The translations under genes were made by a program, and so were the position numbers. From NCBI GenBank assembly GCA_019509785.1, contig JAEKLQ010000032.1:75229-139228 (forward strand): 64,000 nucleotides of DNA, in the 5' to 3' direction. Below, in pieces: positions 49,343 to 54,516 of the stretch. Below the pieces are notes generated by a model. That model saw only the letters and a program-made list of their open reading frames with translations, searched no databases and was not told the DNA's origin. The stretch's first letter is position 1. The number at the start of each line of letters is the position of its first letter. Origin of the DNA: Fibrobacterota bacterium (lineage in GTDB: Bacteria > Fibrobacterota > Fibrobacteria > UBA11236).

Positions 49343-49433
49343 ACCGTACTGAAGGCGGCTATCTTCGGCGCTGTTGCTATATTTGCCCCCCGGACCGAAG
49401 GGGGATGGCGGAGAATTGGTCTTCCTGACTCGC

Positions 49434-50423
49434 ATGCCGGATATCCCCGAAAACAAGCCGACCCGAAGTGGCCGCGCCGCGCGGCAAGCCAGGCCTTTCC
49501 TGAAATGGGCCGGCGGCAAAGGGCAACTCCTCAAAGCGCTTTCGGCCTTTTTCCCCAAGGCCCTTTCCGACGGAAGCGTTACCGATTACTACGAACCTTT
49601 CCTGGGCGGCGGGGCCATGTTCTTCCACATGATGCAAGCCTATCCCATGCGCCGGGCCTTCCTGATGGACGCCAACGAGGAGATCGTGCTCCTCTATAAG
49701 GTGGTGCAGAACGACGTGGAGCCCTTGCTCTCATGCCTTGGGCAAATGGAACGCGAATACCGGAAACTTTCCCCGTTAAAGCGGCAGGATCGGTACTTGA
49801 AGGTCCGCGCCGCCCTCAACCGCGCCCGGCCTGACATGAACTACAAGAAATACGCGAAAGAACCCTGGGTCGAGCGGGCGGCCCAACTGCTCTTCCTCAA
49901 CAAGACGTGCTATAACGGGCTGTTCCGGGTGAACCGGAGCGGCGGCTTCAATACCCCGTTCGGACGGTACGCCAATCCGACCATCGCCGATGGTGATAAT
50001 CTGCGCGCGGCTTCGGCGTTGCTGGCCAAGGCGCAAATCCGCCTCGGCGACTTCGGCGAACTCGGCGCGCTGGACGCCCGCCCCCGCGGCCTCTTGAAGC
50101 CGGGCTCCTTCATTTATTACGATCCGCCCTATCGCCCCTTGTCGCGTACCTCCAACTTCACGGCCTACAGCCGCTTCGCCTTCGGCGATGCGGAGCAGGA
50201 AAGGCTGGCAGGCCTCTTCCGCGCCCTGGATCGCAAAGGCATCTACCAGATGCTCTCCAACTCCGATCCGCGCAATGCCGATCCCGCCGACGATTTCTTC
50301 GAACGGACCTACTCCGATTACGGGAAGACCTTCTGGAGGGTACCGGCCACGCGCGCGATCAACTCGGTCGCCAAGGGCCGCGGGCGCATCAACGAGATCG
50401 TGATCACGAACTACAGCCCATGA
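49434..50423 (+). CDS. Dam-family DNA adenine-N6 methyltransferase (type II modification enzyme)
   Basis: 329 residues. FLKWAGGKG (about 22-30) and EPFLGGGAMFF (about 54-64) are the SAM-binding motifs of D12-class adenine methylases; FLNKTCYNGLFRVNRSGGFN (about 154-173) is the Dam-family recognition hallmark, and DPPY (about 230-233) is the catalytic motif. It methylates N6 of adenine; Dam/DpnM relatives act on GATC, so that is the likely but unproven target. Start at ATG 49434; a TTG at 49374 is an alternative. It overlaps the next gene by four bases, and the pair is a restriction-modification unit. Confidence 0.87.
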   Translation: MPDIPENKPTRSGRAARQARPFLKWAGGKGQLLKALSAFFPKALSDGSVTDYYEPFLGGGAMFFHMMQAYPMRRAFLMDANEEIVLLYKVVQNDVEPLLSCLGQMEREYRKLSPLKRQDRYLKVRAALNRARPDMNYKKYAKEPWVERAAQLLFLNKTCYNGLFRVNRSGGFNTPFGRYANPTIADGDNLRAASALLAKAQIRLGDFGELGALDARPRGLLKPGSFIYYDPPYRPLSRTSNFTAYSRFAFGDAEQERLAGLFRALDRKGIYQMLSNSDPRNADPADDFFERTYSDYGKTFWRVPATRAINSVAKGRGRINEIVITNYSP

Positions 50424-51700
50424 TGGAGCGCGATGCGGCTTGGAAGCGCGTTTGCGACGCCTTGCCGGTGGCGGAAACATTGGAGCGCGAAGGCCTATTC
50501 GCGATCACCGCGGATGAACTGAAGCGGCACGGGGGCCGTGAACCCCGGCTGATGGCCAAGATCGATACCTTGGCCGAACGTCCAGCCGCCCTGGCGGATC
50601 TGGGCGCGGCCCTGTTCCCGGTCCGCAACGGCAAATACGTCCTCTTCCCGGATCCGGACCGGAAAAGCTTCTTCCGCTTCGAGGGCGAGCCCCTGCCTCC
50701 CCGCGCCTTCGCCGCAAAGATGGACCTGGGCCGGTTCGATACCTTCCCCCGCGGGCAAGAGGCCAGCGAGAGCCAAGCCTTGGATTCCGCTTTCCTGTCG
50801 GGCTTGTTGGCCGCCTTCTGCGGGGAGCCCGGCCTGTGCCTTACCCTGCGGGGCCGGATTTTCTCCGGTGATTTCTCCTTCCGCACTCCGCAGCGCGGCC
50901 TTCCCATCGGGGTTTCCCGGGTGCAAATGGAGGTCGACGCGGGCTACGAAGGCGAGGACGGCGTCTACCTGATCGAAGCCAAGCGCGGCCGTCGCGAGGA
51001 TTTCCATATCCGCCAACTGTGGTATCCCTACCTGCATTGGAGCCAGCGTACGCGCAAACGCGTGGTGCCGATTTTCTTCACCTACAGCAACGGGCAATTC
51101 GAATTGTCCGAGTTCGCCTTCGGGCAGGAATTCGGGGAAGCGGCGTTGGTGCGCCGGAAAGCCTATTGCTTGGAAGAACCGCGGGCGGCGGCGGATTTCA
51201 AGACCCTTTTCGCGCGCGTGTCCATCGGCGCAGAGCCCATTGGCGCTTTCCCCCAGGCCAATGATTTGGATAAGGTGGTTGATTTGGTAGGCTTGGCGGC
51301 GGATGCTCCCAAGTCCAAGGCCGATATCGCCGAGGCCTTCGGCTTCGAAGAGCGGCAAGGCGACTACTACGGCAACGCCGGCTGCTATCTGGGCCTGCTG
51401 CGGCGGAGCGACGAAGGCTTCGCCCTCACGGAGGAAGGGGAAGCTTTCCAGCGGCTGCGCTCGCGGCCGGCGCGTACCTTGGCCCTGCTCGAGGCCATGG
51501 CCCGCATACCCAGCCTCAGGGAGGCCTTGCGCCTATTGGCCGAACGCCGATTCCGAGCGGAGAAGATCGCCGCCGGCGAATTGGCCGCGGTGGTGCGCGA
51601 GGCGACGGGCCTGGGCGCGTCGACGCCGGAGCGACGGGCCTCGACGGTACGGGCCTGGCTGGCTTGGGTGATGAAGAACGTGAAAGTGGAAGATGCGTAA
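50420..51700 (+). CDS. Predicted type II restriction endonuclease with PD-(D/E)xK core
   Basis: 426 residues. The presumed nuclease core is MEVDAGYEGEDGVYLIEAKRGR (about 170-191), giving Glu-x-Asp ... Glu-Ala-Lys, followed by RREDFHIRQLWYPYLHW. That is the PD-(D/E)xK pattern, with a short loop. The N-terminal 60 residues look like a helical DNA-binding part, and the C-terminal 150 residues have winged-helix-like segments (SKADIAEAFGFEERQGDYYGNAGCYLGLLRRSDEGFALTEEG). I cannot name a family with certainty. The ATGA overlap with a Dam-type methylase makes it the cognate restriction enzyme, probably for the same site. It overlaps the next gene by eight bases. Confidence 0.75.
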   Translation: MMERDAAWKRVCDALPVAETLEREGLFAITADELKRHGGREPRLMAKIDTLAERPAALADLGAALFPVRNGKYVLFPDPDRKSFFRFEGEPLPPRAFAAKMDLGRFDTFPRGQEASESQALDSAFLSGLLAAFCGEPGLCLTLRGRIFSGDFSFRTPQRGLPIGVSRVQMEVDAGYEGEDGVYLIEAKRGRREDFHIRQLWYPYLHWSQRTRKRVVPIFFTYSNGQFELSEFAFGQEFGEAALVRRKAYCLEEPRAAADFKTLFARVSIGAEPIGAFPQANDLDKVVDLVGLAADAPKSKADIAEAFGFEERQGDYYGNAGCYLGLLRRSDEGFALTEEGEAFQRLRSRPARTLALLEAMARIPSLREALRLLAERRFRAEKIAAGELAAVVREATGLGASTPERRASTVRAWLAWVMKNVKVEDA

Positions 51701-52328
51701 CGATCACGATCCGCCCTTGCCTACCCTCGCCTTCACGGATTGGCTGCGGGCCATGGATGCGTCCGCGCGTTCCGGCGAAGGGATGGCCGTCGATTGCGGC
51801 GAGTGCCGCGGTTGCTGCACTTCCTCGTATTTCATCCCTATCGAATCCGATGAGAAGGAAACCTTGGCGCACATCCCCAAGCGCCTGCTTTTCCCCGCGC
51901 CGGGCAAATCGAAGGGTCGCTGGCTTATCGGCTTCGATGAAAAGGGCCATTGCGCCTTCTTCAAGGACAATGCCTGTTCCATTTACGCCCATCGGCCCCG
52001 CGTTTGCCGCGCCTATGACTGCCGCGTCTTCCCGGCCACGGGCCTTTCCGAAGACGATAAGCCGGCCATAGCGAACCAGGCCAAGCGCTGGCGTTTCGGT
52101 TTTCCTTCCGCGGAAGACGAGCGGCAATTCGAAGCGGCGCGGGCGGCGGCCCGTTTCCTGCGCGGGCACGCGGCGGATTTCCCGGAAGCATTCCTGCCCT
52201 CCCAAGCAACCCAACTGGCCGCCCTCGCGCTCCGCATCCGCTCGGTATTCCTAGGCAAGCGGTCCACCAGCGCCGCGAAGATCGCCGAAATCCTCGCCTT
52301 GGCGGCGCATGGCGCAGGATCCGGTTGA
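51693..52328 (+). CDS. YkgJ family cysteine-cluster protein
   Basis: 211 residues. The metal-binding cluster reads VDCGECRGCCTSS (CxxCxxCC) near residue 35, followed by CAFFKDNACSIYAHRPRVCRAYDC, the second Cys group of the YkgJ/CxxCxxCC family. These proteins probably hold zinc or an iron-sulfur cluster; function unknown. The C-terminus is helical and Ala-rich. It overlaps the end of the restriction enzyme gene by eight bases, so it shares its transcript, but no functional link is known. TTGACC of the next promoter overlaps its stop codon. Confidence 0.82.
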   Translation: MRNDHDPPLPTLAFTDWLRAMDASARSGEGMAVDCGECRGCCTSSYFIPIESDEKETLAHIPKRLLFPAPGKSKGRWLIGFDEKGHCAFFKDNACSIYAHRPRVCRAYDCRVFPATGLSEDDKPAIANQAKRWRFGFPSAEDERQFEAARAAARFLRGHAADFPEAFLPSQATQLAALALRIRSVFLGKRSTSAAKIAEILALAAHGAGSG

Positions 52329-52353
52329 CCGGGATGCCCGGGCGGGGTATCTT
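52325..52353 (+). promoter_or_regulatory. Sigma-70-like promoter of the aromatic attenuator transcript
   Basis: TTGACC (52325-52330), a 17-base spacer, TATCTT (52348-52353). It overlaps the stop of the YkgJ gene. The spacer holds CCGGG-ATG-CCCGG, a perfect inverted repeat. Seven bases separate the -10 from the leader ATG, so transcription would begin at about that codon. Confidence 0.65.
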
Positions 52354-52360
52354 TGACCTC

Positions 52361-52426
52361 ATGCACAAGCTTATCGCTGCCGCGTATTTTCCCTACTTCT
52401 TCTGGCGGGAGACCCCCGGGGGTTAG
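52361..52426 (+). CDS. Aromatic leader peptide, 21 residues
   Basis: ATG at 52361, stop TAG at 52424-52426. Residues 9-15 read YFPYFFW: Tyr, Phe, Tyr, Phe, Phe and Trp with one Pro, six aromatic codons in seven. The rest is MHKLIAAA before it and RETPGG after it. This is the design of leader peptides in front of aromatic amino-acid operons. No Shine-Dalgarno is seen, and the promoter -10 is only seven bases upstream, so it may be translated from a leaderless message. The last codons lie in the RNA segment that can form the antiterminator. Confidence 0.8.
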   Translation: MHKLIAAAYFPYFFWRETPGG

Positions 52427-52483
52427 GGAATTCGTTCGCTGGCGACGGAAACTCGACCCCCGGGGATGCCCCGGGGGTTTTTT
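52414..52483 (+). promoter_or_regulatory. Translation-controlled attenuator for DAHP synthase
   Basis: Segment 2 is CCCCGGGGGT at 52414-52423, the end of the leader reading frame. Segment 3 is ACCCCCGGGG at 52456-52465, its exact complement. Segment 4 is CCCCGGGGGT at 52469-52478, identical to segment 2 and followed by T-run 52478-52483. Segments 2-3 and 3-4 are mutually exclusive. A ribosome at the stop codon would cover segment 2 and allow the 3-4 terminator; a ribosome stalled on scarce Tyr/Phe/Trp codons would free segment 2, forming 2-3 and letting transcription proceed. Confidence 0.8.
52457..52483 (+). terminator. Attenuator terminator before DAHP synthase
   Basis: CCCCCGGGG (52457-52465), loop ATG, CCCCGGGGG (52469-52477), then TTTTTT. 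A nine-bp all-GC stem with a U-run, 32 bases before the DAHP synthase start. Confidence 0.9.
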
Positions 52484-52514
52484 CGTTTGGTACGGAAAGT
52501 CGGGAAAGGAAAAC

Positions 52515-53558
52515 ATGCAAGCCACCGAGAATCTCAACATCCGGGAGATCGTTCCCCTGATCCCGCCCGGCGAACTCAAACGCATGCTGCCGATGGACGA
52601 GGCCGCCAACGCGACGGTCTTGGCCGGCCGTAAGGCGGTCCAGGAAATCCTTTCGGGGACGGACAAACGCATCCTGGCCATCGTCGGACCGTGTTCCATC
52701 CATGACACGGACGGGGCCCTGGAATACGCGCGCCGCTTCAAAGGCTTGCGCGATCAGGTCGCCGATCGGATTTGCCTGCTCATGCGCGTGTACTTCGAGA
52801 AGCCTCGCACCACGGTGGGATGGAAGGGCTTCATCAATGATCCCTTCCTGGACGAATCCGGCGACATCTCGACGGGCGTGCGCGAAGCGCGGCGTCTGCT
52901 CCTGCAAATCAACGGGATGGGCATCCCCGCCGCCAGCGAATTCCTCGATCCCATCGTACCGCAGTACATCGCCGACCTGGTCGCCTGGGCCGCCATCGGC
53001 GCGCGCACGACCGAGTCGCAAACGCACCGCCAGATGGCGAGCGGGCTTTCCATGCCGGTGGGCTTCAAGAACGGCACCGACGGCAACATCCAGGTGGCCG
53101 TGGACGCCTTGATCTCGGCGCGCTTCCCCCATAACTTCCTGGGGTTGGATTCCGAAGGGCGCACCGCCATCGTGAAGACAAAGGGAAATCCTTACGGGCA
53201 TATCGTCCTGCGCGGCGGGAAGTCCAAAACCAATTACGACGCCGAAAGCATCGCCGAAGCCGTGGCCCAATTACGCAAAGCCTCCCTGGAGACCCGCGTG
53301 GTGGTGGATTGCAGCCACGGCAATACCCAGAAGCGGCATGAGCTTCAGGAAGAAGTCTGGAAAAGCGTGGTGGCCCAGAAGGCGGCGGGCAATGCCGCCG
53401 TGGTGGGAGCCATGGTCGAGAGTAATTTGTTCGGCGGAAGCCAGAAGATCCCGGGCGACCGTTCGCAATTGAAGTACGGCGTTTCGATCACCGACGAATG
53501 CATTGGTTGGGAAACCACCGAACGGATGATTCTGGAAGCCTATCAGGGACTGGCATAA
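52515..53558 (+). CDS. aroF: 3-deoxy-7-phosphoheptulonate (DAHP) synthase, class I AroF/G/H type
   Basis: 347 residues, close to the 350 of E. coli AroG. Motifs include LAIVGPCSIHDTDGALEYA, MRVYFEKPRTTVGWKGFINDPFLDES, SEFLDPIVPQYIADLVAWAAIGARTTESQTHRQMASGLSMPVGFKNGTDG and VVVDCSHGNTQKRHELQ, all of class I alpha DAHP synthase. It condenses PEP and erythrose 4-phosphate at the start of the shikimate pathway in the cytoplasm. Feedback isoform (Phe, Tyr or Trp) cannot be read from sequence; the attenuator contains codons for all three. GGAAAGGA stands before the ATG. No other aro gene is adjacent. The symbol aroF is used as a generic label. Confidence 0.93.
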   Translation: MQATENLNIREIVPLIPPGELKRMLPMDEAANATVLAGRKAVQEILSGTDKRILAIVGPCSIHDTDGALEYARRFKGLRDQVADRICLLMRVYFEKPRTTVGWKGFINDPFLDESGDISTGVREARRLLLQINGMGIPAASEFLDPIVPQYIADLVAWAAIGARTTESQTHRQMASGLSMPVGFKNGTDGNIQVAVDALISARFPHNFLGLDSEGRTAIVKTKGNPYGHIVLRGGKSKTNYDAESIAEAVAQLRKASLETRVVVDCSHGNTQKRHELQEEVWKSVVAQKAAGNAAVVGAMVESNLFGGSQKIPGDRSQLKYGVSITDECIGWETTERMILEAYQGLA

Positions 53559-53581
53559 GGTCCCCGATATATTCAGGGTCT

Positions 53582-53893
53582 CTAGCGCTTTTCCGGAGCC
53601 GGTTCTTCGCCGGCTTCGGCTTCCGGGGGCCCGGGCTTCAGGAAAAAGATCCCCACGACGGCGAAGCTGGCGAACGCCAAAACGGCCTTGAGCAACAAAT
53701 CCGTATAGATCCCGAAATGCCAATGCTCGAAAAGGTTCTTCTCGCCGACCAATAAGGCCGTCAGGACCACGAAGACCCCGAAGACGACCTTGCCTCGCTG
53801 GGTTTCCAGGTTCATCCCGCGGGCGCGGGCGCGTAACCAGAAGAATCCCCCGAAGAGGATGAGCGCCATTACGATCTTTTCCGTTAATGCCAT
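53582..53893 (-). CDS. Small membrane protein, hypothetical
   Basis: 103 residues with three probable membrane helices: VMALILFGGFFWLRA, KVVFGVFVVLTALLVG and KAVLAFASFAVVGIFFL, then a charged Glu/Pro-rich tail (PGPPEAEAGEEPAPEKR). No family is recognised. The gene is convergent with DAHP synthase. There is no Shine-Dalgarno, but TACTTT lies seven bases before the ATG on the minus strand. Confidence 0.6.
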   Translation of the reverse strand: MALTEKIVMALILFGGFFWLRARARGMNLETQRGKVVFGVFVVLTALLVGEKNLFEHWHFGIYTDLLLKAVLAFASFAVVGIFFLKPGPPEAEAGEEPAPEKR

Positions 53894-54057
53894 GCAAGGG
53901 AAAGTAGGAAGATCGGCCCGGGGCTGCGAGCGGCGGGGTTAAATGCCCCTGAGCCTCCTAATTCCGAAGTAATTTCCCGCAGGCCTCCGCATTAATTAAA
54001 TTCGACTCGAAGAGCCCTTTAGGAAATGGGGGCGTAGTACACTTCGGAGGTTCCCGG

Positions 54058-54516
54058 ATGAAAAGTTTTCGACTGCTCTTGATCGCCGCGGCATGCGCCG
54101 CCTTCGTAGGTACGGCCCAAGCCCGCATGGGCGGCAACTTCGGCCTGGGCTTCATCGCCGGCTTGCCTTCCGGCTTGTCGGGCAAGCTTTGGCTGAACAA
54201 CACCAACGCGGTCGACATGATCCTGGGCTTCAACCCTTCCGACGACTGGCTCCAAGTGCGCGCCGATTACGTATGGCATGAATTCAACCTGTTCCCGGTC
54301 AGCTCCGGCCAATTGCCGCTTTACTACGGGATGGGCGCCGGCACCGAGATCTCGGGCGGGGGCCTGGGGTTGCTGGCGCGCGGCGTGGTGGGGATCGAGT
54401 ACCTTTTCCCGCGCGCCCCGCTCGACGCGTTCTTCGAAATCGGCCCGGGCATCCGAGTATTCCCCCGCACGGATTTCGACATGAGCGCGGGCCTGGGGAT
54501 GCGCTACTACTTCTGA
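54058..54516 (+). CDS. Outer-membrane beta-barrel-like protein
   Basis: 152 residues. A signal peptide (LLLIAAACAAFVGTAQA) precedes a Gly- and aromatic-rich chain of alternating strands (NFGLGFIAGLPSGLSGKLWL, WLQVRADYVWHEFNLF, LPLYYGMGAGTEISGG, LLARGVVGIEYLF) ending MRYYF, the terminal Phe of Bam-assembled barrels. It is like small DUF3996-type outer-membrane proteins. GGAGG precedes the ATG. Function unknown; a small 8-strand barrel is probable. Confidence 0.78.
   Translation: MKSFRLLLIAAACAAFVGTAQARMGGNFGLGFIAGLPSGLSGKLWLNNTNAVDMILGFNPSDDWLQVRADYVWHEFNLFPVSSGQLPLYYGMGAGTEISGGGLGLLARGVVGIEYLFPRAPLDAFFEIGPGIRVFPRTDFDMSAGLGMRYYF

What the first reader, a model, noticed from the sequence alone, without database searches (positions are those of the whole stretch)
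52325..52515. Aromatic-responsive attenuator upstream of DAHP synthase, with identical competing RNA segments
Seen directly: a leader frame with YFPYFFW, then CCCCGGGGGT (52414-52423) and an identical copy at 52469-52478, both complementary to ACCCCCGGGG (52456-52465), the second followed by six T. Known: translation-coupled attenuation controls pheA, trp and his operons in this way. Inference: stalling on Tyr/Phe/Trp codons keeps segment 2 free, allowing antitermination of aroF-type DAHP synthase. A leader sensing all three aromatic amino acids, in front of a single DAHP synthase gene in a likely FCB bacterium, may not be described. The leader ATG lies only seven bases after the -10, so the leader may be translated without a 5' UTR.
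Basis: partly seen in the sequence, partly recalled or inferred. Interest (0 to 1): 0.88.

Follow-up and report, generated by a model that had tools for sequence, protein, structure and literature searches.

The report
Aromatic-sensing attenuator before DAHP synthase
A short RNA switch read by the ribosome, whose tiny leader peptide is packed with tyrosine, phenylalanine and tryptophan codons, most probably turns on the first enzyme of aromatic amino acid synthesis when those amino acids run short; the mechanism is textbook, but here it sits at the pathway's entry point in bacteria where it does not seem to have been described.

Summary
Window 52325-52483 carries a sigma-70-like promoter, a 21-codon leader (MHKLIAAAYFPYFFWRETPGG*), and segments that can fold as a protector (1:2), an antiterminator (2:3) or a terminator with U-run (3:4), directly before a class Ialpha (AroFGH-type) DAHP synthase gene. 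It is the only such site in 64 kb.

All six held genomes of the genus keep promoter, leader and segments (YFFYFWRETxGG* in most). In ribosome-position folding, segment 3 pairs with segment 2 while the ribosome is on the aromatic codons, and the pairing is lost just after them.

The same layout with unrelated sequences precedes DAHP synthase genes labelled Latescibacterota, Chloroflexota and Desulfobacterota. Four genera of another class of the window's phylum have two such attenuators in series. Of 108 upstream regions, 17 have leader plus terminator, against 0.2 in shuffles.

It is best read as ribosome-mediated transcription attenuation. It is a new member of a known kind; nothing was tested experimentally.

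The parts
52325..52353 (+). sigma-70-like promoter, TTGACC - 17 nt - TATCTT
   Evidence: TTGACC-17-TATCTT kept in all six genus members
52361..52426 (+). leader ORF MHKLIAAAYFPYFFWRETPGG*, regulatory cluster Y F P Y F F W at 52385-52405
   Evidence: frame, stop position and aromatic cluster kept in the genus; start likely at or near the 5' end
52389..52409 (+). segment 1: aromatic codons that can pair with segment 2 (protector hairpin 1:2)
   Evidence: RNAfold in all six species; synonymous-codon shuffles, combined p 2.3e-5, species not independent
52413..52430 (+). segment 2, core CCGGGGGTT at 52416-52424, overlapping the stop codon
   Evidence: CCGGGGGTTAGGGAATTCG conserved, found with at most 2 mismatches only at this gene in all six genomes; pairs with segment 1 or 3
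52455..52465 (+). segment 3, GACCCCCGGGG, pairs with segment 2 (antiterminator) or 4 (terminator)
   Evidence: 95% and 100% of cells paired in the six species
52469..52483 (+). segment 4 and U-run, 3' arm of the intrinsic terminator
52515..53558 (+). regulated gene: class Ialpha (AroFGH-type) DAHP synthase, 347 aa
   Evidence: NF009395 2.5e-152, TIGR00034 2.8e-142, both above cut-off

Best explanation
A ribosome-mediated transcription attenuator for the entry enzyme of the shikimate pathway. RNA polymerase starts just before or at the leader ATG and a ribosome follows it. With charged tRNA-Tyr, tRNA-Phe and tRNA-Trp plentiful, the ribosome reaches the stop codon, covers segment 2 (or releases and lets 1:2 form), segment 3 pairs with 4 and transcription ends at about 52483. 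When any of the three is short, the ribosome stalls in YFPYFFW, masks segment 1 and leaves segment 2 free; segment 2 pairs with segment 3, the terminator cannot form, and DAHP synthase is made. Shown here: sequence anatomy, conservation, competing pairings and their dependence on ribosome position in folding calculations. Inferred: transcription start, translation, stalling, termination and the amino acid response.
For: Anatomy. All six held genus members keep promoter, in-frame leader with aromatic cluster (window and G005 one codon longer), stop position, segment 2 and terminator, while the sequence upstream of the promoter differs in several of them. Synonymous changes (TAT/TAC, TTT/TTC) at aromatic codons. 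Folding by ribosome position: at equilibrium the window's antiterminator has P 0.92-0.98 for A-site codons 8-14 (A Y F P Y F F) and the terminator wins for earlier and later codons, Trp-15 being borderline. When segment 3 has just emerged, its pairing upstream averages 0.73 over aromatic codons and 0.10 at the stop codon in 22 leaders, 22 of 22 in the same direction, Wilcoxon p 2e-7. Segment 2 starts 7-9 nt after the last aromatic codon in five genus members and 8-16 nt in the other-class, Latescibacterota, Dehalococcoidia L060 and Desulfatitalea cases. Segment 2:3 complementarity beats shuffles, combined p 1.4e-8 without the genus. Leader plus terminator in 17 of 108 upstream regions versus 0.2 in shuffles.
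Against: No RNA, translation or regulation data. Covariation within the genus is weak: one three-way change (C-G to U-A in G005) plus wobbles, not above column shuffles. At equilibrium the terminator wins in G002 and G001 whatever the ribosome position, so antitermination there needs segment 2:3 to form first. G001 has only YFF and no Trp. Mismatches in G003 and G002 shorten their antiterminators. Most Chloroflexota cases have weak 2:3 complementarity individually.
Confidence: 0.9

Rival explanations
1. Nascent-peptide arrest (TnaC-like): the conserved leader peptide itself arrests the ribosome in response to a free aromatic amino acid, rather than the ribosome stalling on uncharged tRNA.
For: The C-terminal RETxGG is conserved in five of six species.
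Against: In G001 the peptide end diverges to RRATLGG while the RNA core GGGGGTTAGGGAATTCG is kept, so RNA rather than peptide is conserved there; residues differ completely in other phyla while the codon class and spacing persist. An arrest at the last codons would cover segment 2 and favour termination.
Confidence: 0.04
2. Plain terminator of the upstream gene plus a chance ORF; DAHP synthase is transcribed from a promoter after the terminator.
For: The upstream gene ends at 52328, so a terminator downstream of it would be expected.
Against: A conserved promoter lies before the leader, no second sigma-70-like site was found in 51600-54100, and the unit persists in genus members with different upstream sequence. 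Leader plus terminator before DAHP synthase recurs far above chance.
Confidence: 0.03
3. A refinement of the main reading rather than its opposite: attenuation mainly senses one or two of the amino acids (Phe and Tyr), with the single Trp codon neutral.
For: Trp is the last aromatic codon and borderline in folding; G001 lacks it; in C. glutamicum aroF only Phe limitation had effect although Tyr is in the leader (PMC11802643).
Against: Trp is kept in five of six genus members and in all eight tandem leaders of the other class; with an 11-nt footprint a ribosome at Trp still leaves the antiterminator favoured.
Confidence: 0.35

Closest known systems
aroR-aroF attenuator of Corynebacterium glutamicum (PMC4046766; Neshat et al. 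2014 as cited in PMC11802643)
   Same: Leader peptide with aromatic codons before a DAHP synthase gene; ribosome-mediated attenuation
   Different: Phe-Tyr-Phe only, responds to Phe limitation and not Tyr; Actinobacteria. Here Y, F and W in one cluster, in another phylum
E. coli pheA (pheL) and trp (trpL) attenuators
   Same: Four-segment logic: 1:2 protector, 2:3 antiterminator, 3:4 terminator, leader rich in the pathway's product (established knowledge; PMC11802643)
   Different: Those control terminal branches with one amino acid; here the common entry step with three. No aromatic leader was found before trpE or pheA (PDT) in this genus
ilvGMEDA/ilvB leader attenuators (multivalent branched-chain sensing)
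   Same: One leader with codons for several end products of a shared pathway (established knowledge)
   Different: Branched-chain, not aromatic
Leader peptides translated without a 5' UTR or ribosome binding site: C. glutamicum ilvBNC (Morbach 2000, cited in PMC4046766), Streptomyces lividans trpL, ilvL, leuL (PMC8079986)
   Same: Leader ORF starts at or near the transcript's 5' end
   Different: Other phylum and pathway

Membership tests
Ribosome-mediated (leader peptide) transcription attenuator | Short leader ORF with a cluster of codons for the pathway's product | tested here: met
   YFPYFFW in 21 codons; kept in the genus
Ribosome-mediated (leader peptide) transcription attenuator | Intrinsic terminator between leader and first gene | tested here: met
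   52455-52483, -23.2 kcal/mol; in all six species
Ribosome-mediated (leader peptide) transcription attenuator | Mutually exclusive antiterminator whose formation depends on ribosome position | tested here: met
   (calculation only; equilibrium version not met in G002 and G001)
Ribosome-mediated (leader peptide) transcription attenuator | Protector hairpin 1:2 that sequesters segment 2 | tested here: met
   predicted in all six species; synonymous shuffles combined p 2.3e-5; a narrower first test was negative
Ribosome-mediated (leader peptide) transcription attenuator | Downstream gene makes the sensed amino acids | tested here: met
   DAHP synthase, first step to Phe, Tyr and Trp
Ribosome-mediated (leader peptide) transcription attenuator | Leader translated and readthrough rises on starvation | not testable with these tools
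   needs RNA and reporter experiments
T-box, riboswitch or other Rfam leader family | Match to a described RNA family | tested here: not met
   no Rfam match at gathering score at the element or in 19 related loci; only two tRNAs elsewhere in the window
C. glutamicum aroR-type leader | Homologous leader sequence | not tested
   the aroR sequence was not fetched; only its Phe-Tyr-Phe cluster is reported in the papers read

The most novel reading that the evidence does not exclude
Pan-aromatic attenuators at DAHP synthase are a recurrent regulatory solution in at least four phyla, many starting translation at or near the transcript's 5' end, and one class of the window's phylum uses two of them in series (two leaders, two terminators, one gene), a two-gate design that should sharpen the response to aromatic starvation.
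Probability: 0.5. Interest if true: 0.65.

Novelty: new member of a known kind. Interest (0 to 1): 0.52.

Why it matters
A 2010 survey stated that leader-peptide systems had been shown only in Proteobacteria and Actinobacteria, and added Firmicutes (PMC2965389). This element and its counterparts place the mechanism, by sequence evidence, in several further phyla and at the common entry step of aromatic synthesis, where one leader can read all three end products. It gives uncultured lineages a predictable amino acid response and offers a compact reporter design. The serial two-attenuator version is a natural test of how stacked attenuators shape dose response.

Tried and rejected
Rfam for the window and 19 related loci: no attenuator family. 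Class II DAHP synthase in the genus: none. Aromatic leaders before trpE and pheA (PDT) in the genus: none in the 600 nt examined; the moderately aromatic reading frames before pheA recur in several of the species and look like the end of the upstream gene. A first test of 1:2 using only the bases after GGGGG was negative (combined p 0.19); including segment 2 itself it was positive. Equilibrium folding alone separates aromatic from other codons in the window and three relatives but not in most other loci, so the order of folding has to be assumed there. Literature: no paper in the held library has leader peptide, attenuation and Fibrobacter together (the phylum guess is mine); tandem attenuators are known for Salmonella mgtCBR (title and abstract), which is not a DAHP synthase or amino acid biosynthesis system.

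Full report
What is there. The stretch 52325-52514 lies between a gene with a CxxCxxCC domain (51693-52328) and a 347-aa DAHP synthase (52515-53558; NF009395 and TIGR00034 above cut-off). It holds a sigma-70-like promoter TTGACC-17-TATCTT (52325-52353), a leader ORF MHKLIAAAYFPYFFWRETPGG* (52361-52426), and an intrinsic terminator (52455-52483). The next plausible gene downstream is on the other strand (53582-53893), so the DAHP synthase looks like a single-gene unit. In the whole window, on both strands, no other short aromatic-rich ORF is followed by a terminator and no other place has the X, X', X plus T-run order.

Conservation in the genus. A protein search found a close orthologue in all six held genomes of the genus and in none of the other genomes of the class that were searched. 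All six carry the same element: besides the window, MRNATYSTYSFYFFWRETSGG*, MCNVPSNAYFFYFWRETSGG*, MRNAFSSSYFFYFWRETAGG*, MRHVSSNSYFFYFWRETTGG* and MGNIQANAYFFSSRRATLGG*, with the promoter, the stop position and CCGGGGGTTAGGGAATTCG aligned. That segment occurs with at most two mismatches only at this gene, once per genome. The sequence upstream of the promoter differs between several species, so the element travels with the gene. Aromatic codons change synonymously (TAT/TAC, TTT/TTC). The G001 locus lies at a contig end, has lost Trp and half the cluster, and keeps the RNA core; this separates RNA-level from peptide-level conservation.

Competing structures. Three helices are available: 1:2 (52389-52409 with 52413-52430), 2:3 (52414-52424 with 52455-52465) and 3:4 (terminator). 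Energies in the window are -23.1, -32.0 and -23.2 kcal/mol. In the six species 100% of terminator cells and 95% of antiterminator cells are paired, falling to 76-78% and 70-72% when slid by one base. There is one three-way change, C-G-C to U-A-U at one position of segments 2, 3 and 4 in G005. Covariation as such is not above column shuffles, because the core hardly varies. The 1:2 hairpin is more stable than with synonymous recoding of the leader (combined p 2.3e-5, species not independent). In it the Phe-Phe-Trp codons pair with the GGGGG of segment 2, largely through G-U pairs.

Dependence on the ribosome. With RNA freed 12 nt downstream of the first base of the A-site codon, equilibrium folding favours the antiterminator (0.92-0.98) for A-site codons 8-14 (A, Y, F, P, Y, F, F) and the terminator for codons 1-7 and 16 onward; Trp-15 is borderline and depends on whether the footprint is 11 or 12 nt. 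When only segment 3 has emerged, its pairing with upstream RNA is high while the ribosome is on the aromatic codons and mostly collapses within a few codons after them; aromatic codons exceed the stop codon in 22 of 22 leaders examined (mean 0.73 against 0.10). At full equilibrium the effect is clear in the window and three relatives, and in few others, so elsewhere it relies on segment 2:3 forming first. These are calculations, not measurements.

Beyond the genus. Upstream regions of 108 DAHP synthase homologues were scanned. Seventeen have an aromatic leader plus terminator; dinucleotide shuffles give 0.2. Outside the genus they are four genera of another class of the same phylum (L012-L015) and contigs labelled Latescibacterota (L032), Chloroflexi or Dehalococcoidia (L060, L078, L079, L081, L097, L105) and Desulfatitalea (L084); L091 (Desulfobacteraceae) has a similar leader and hairpin but missed the T-run criterion. 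Sequences are unrelated but the plan is the same, with segment 2 starting 7-16 nt after the last aromatic codon in most, later in several Chloroflexota cases. Segment 2:3 complementarity beats shuffles (combined p 1.4e-8 without the genus), though most Chloroflexota cases are weak one by one. In L012-L015 two complete leader-terminator units stand in series. Record titles of metagenome bins can be wrong, so the phylum labels are leads.

Start of translation. The -10 to start-codon gap is 7 nt in the window, 7-22 nt in the genus and 3-9 nt in several Chloroflexota, without a Shine-Dalgarno-like stretch in nearly all. Translation from the 5' end of the RNA is therefore likely in many but not proven. 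Leader peptides of this type are documented in Corynebacterium and Streptomyces (PMC4046766, PMC8079986).

Setting in the pathway. The genus has no class II DAHP synthase. The window's genome has a second enzyme of class Ibeta type (351 aa, L124 1310-2365; best match NF006421, below its cut-off). Neither trpE nor pheA (PDT) has an aromatic leader in the 600 nt examined. The single leader at the entry step could thus inform the pathway of all three products.

Comparison. The closest described case is aroR-aroF of C. glutamicum, with a Phe-Tyr-Phe leader and a response to Phe limitation but not Tyr (PMC4046766; PMC11802643 citing Neshat 2014). The four-segment logic is that of E. coli trpL and pheL; sensing several products in one leader is known for branched-chain operons (established knowledge). 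A survey of premature terminators stated in 2010 that leader-peptide systems had been shown only in Proteobacteria and Actinobacteria, and added Firmicutes (PMC2965389). The window element is therefore a new member of a known kind; the serial arrangement in the sister class is the more unusual variant.

Limits. No genome-wide attenuator scan was possible. Subscription journals are mostly outside the library searched, so an unseen description cannot be excluded. No experiment was run, so sensing, stalling and termination remain inferred.

Noticed in passing
L012, L013, L014, L015, within about 350 nt upstream of the DAHP synthase gene: Two aromatic leader ORFs in series (e.g. MTNYFYNAAYFYFWFKT* then MITYNSNTDTSYNKDGYFCSFFYFWYFRLPIRGLC* in L015), each with its own terminator, before one DAHP synthase gene, in four genera of another class of the same phylum. 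The stretch between first terminator and second start codon looks too short for a promoter, so the second leader is probably reached only by readthrough.
   Followed up: partly
L032, L060, L078, L079, L081, L084, L091, L097, L105: Independent-looking aromatic leader attenuators before DAHP synthase in contigs labelled Latescibacterota, Chloroflexi/Dehalococcoidia and Desulfobacterales, several apparently starting without a 5' UTR.
   Followed up: partly
L124:1310-2365: Second, class Ibeta-type DAHP synthase (351 aa) in the window's genome, on another contig; a second PF00793 match of similar strength is present in the other five genus members.
   Followed up: partly
49422-51700: D12-class adenine DNA methyltransferase next to a 426-aa protein with DUF6996, DUF6997 and DUF7226 domains, possibly a restriction-modification pair.
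   Followed up: partly
L007, about 1350-1500 (G001): Leader with reduced cluster YFFSSRR and no Trp but intact RNA core; the changed codons (UCC UCC CGG) pair more strongly with segment 2 in the 1:2 hairpin. It lies near a contig end.
   Followed up: partly
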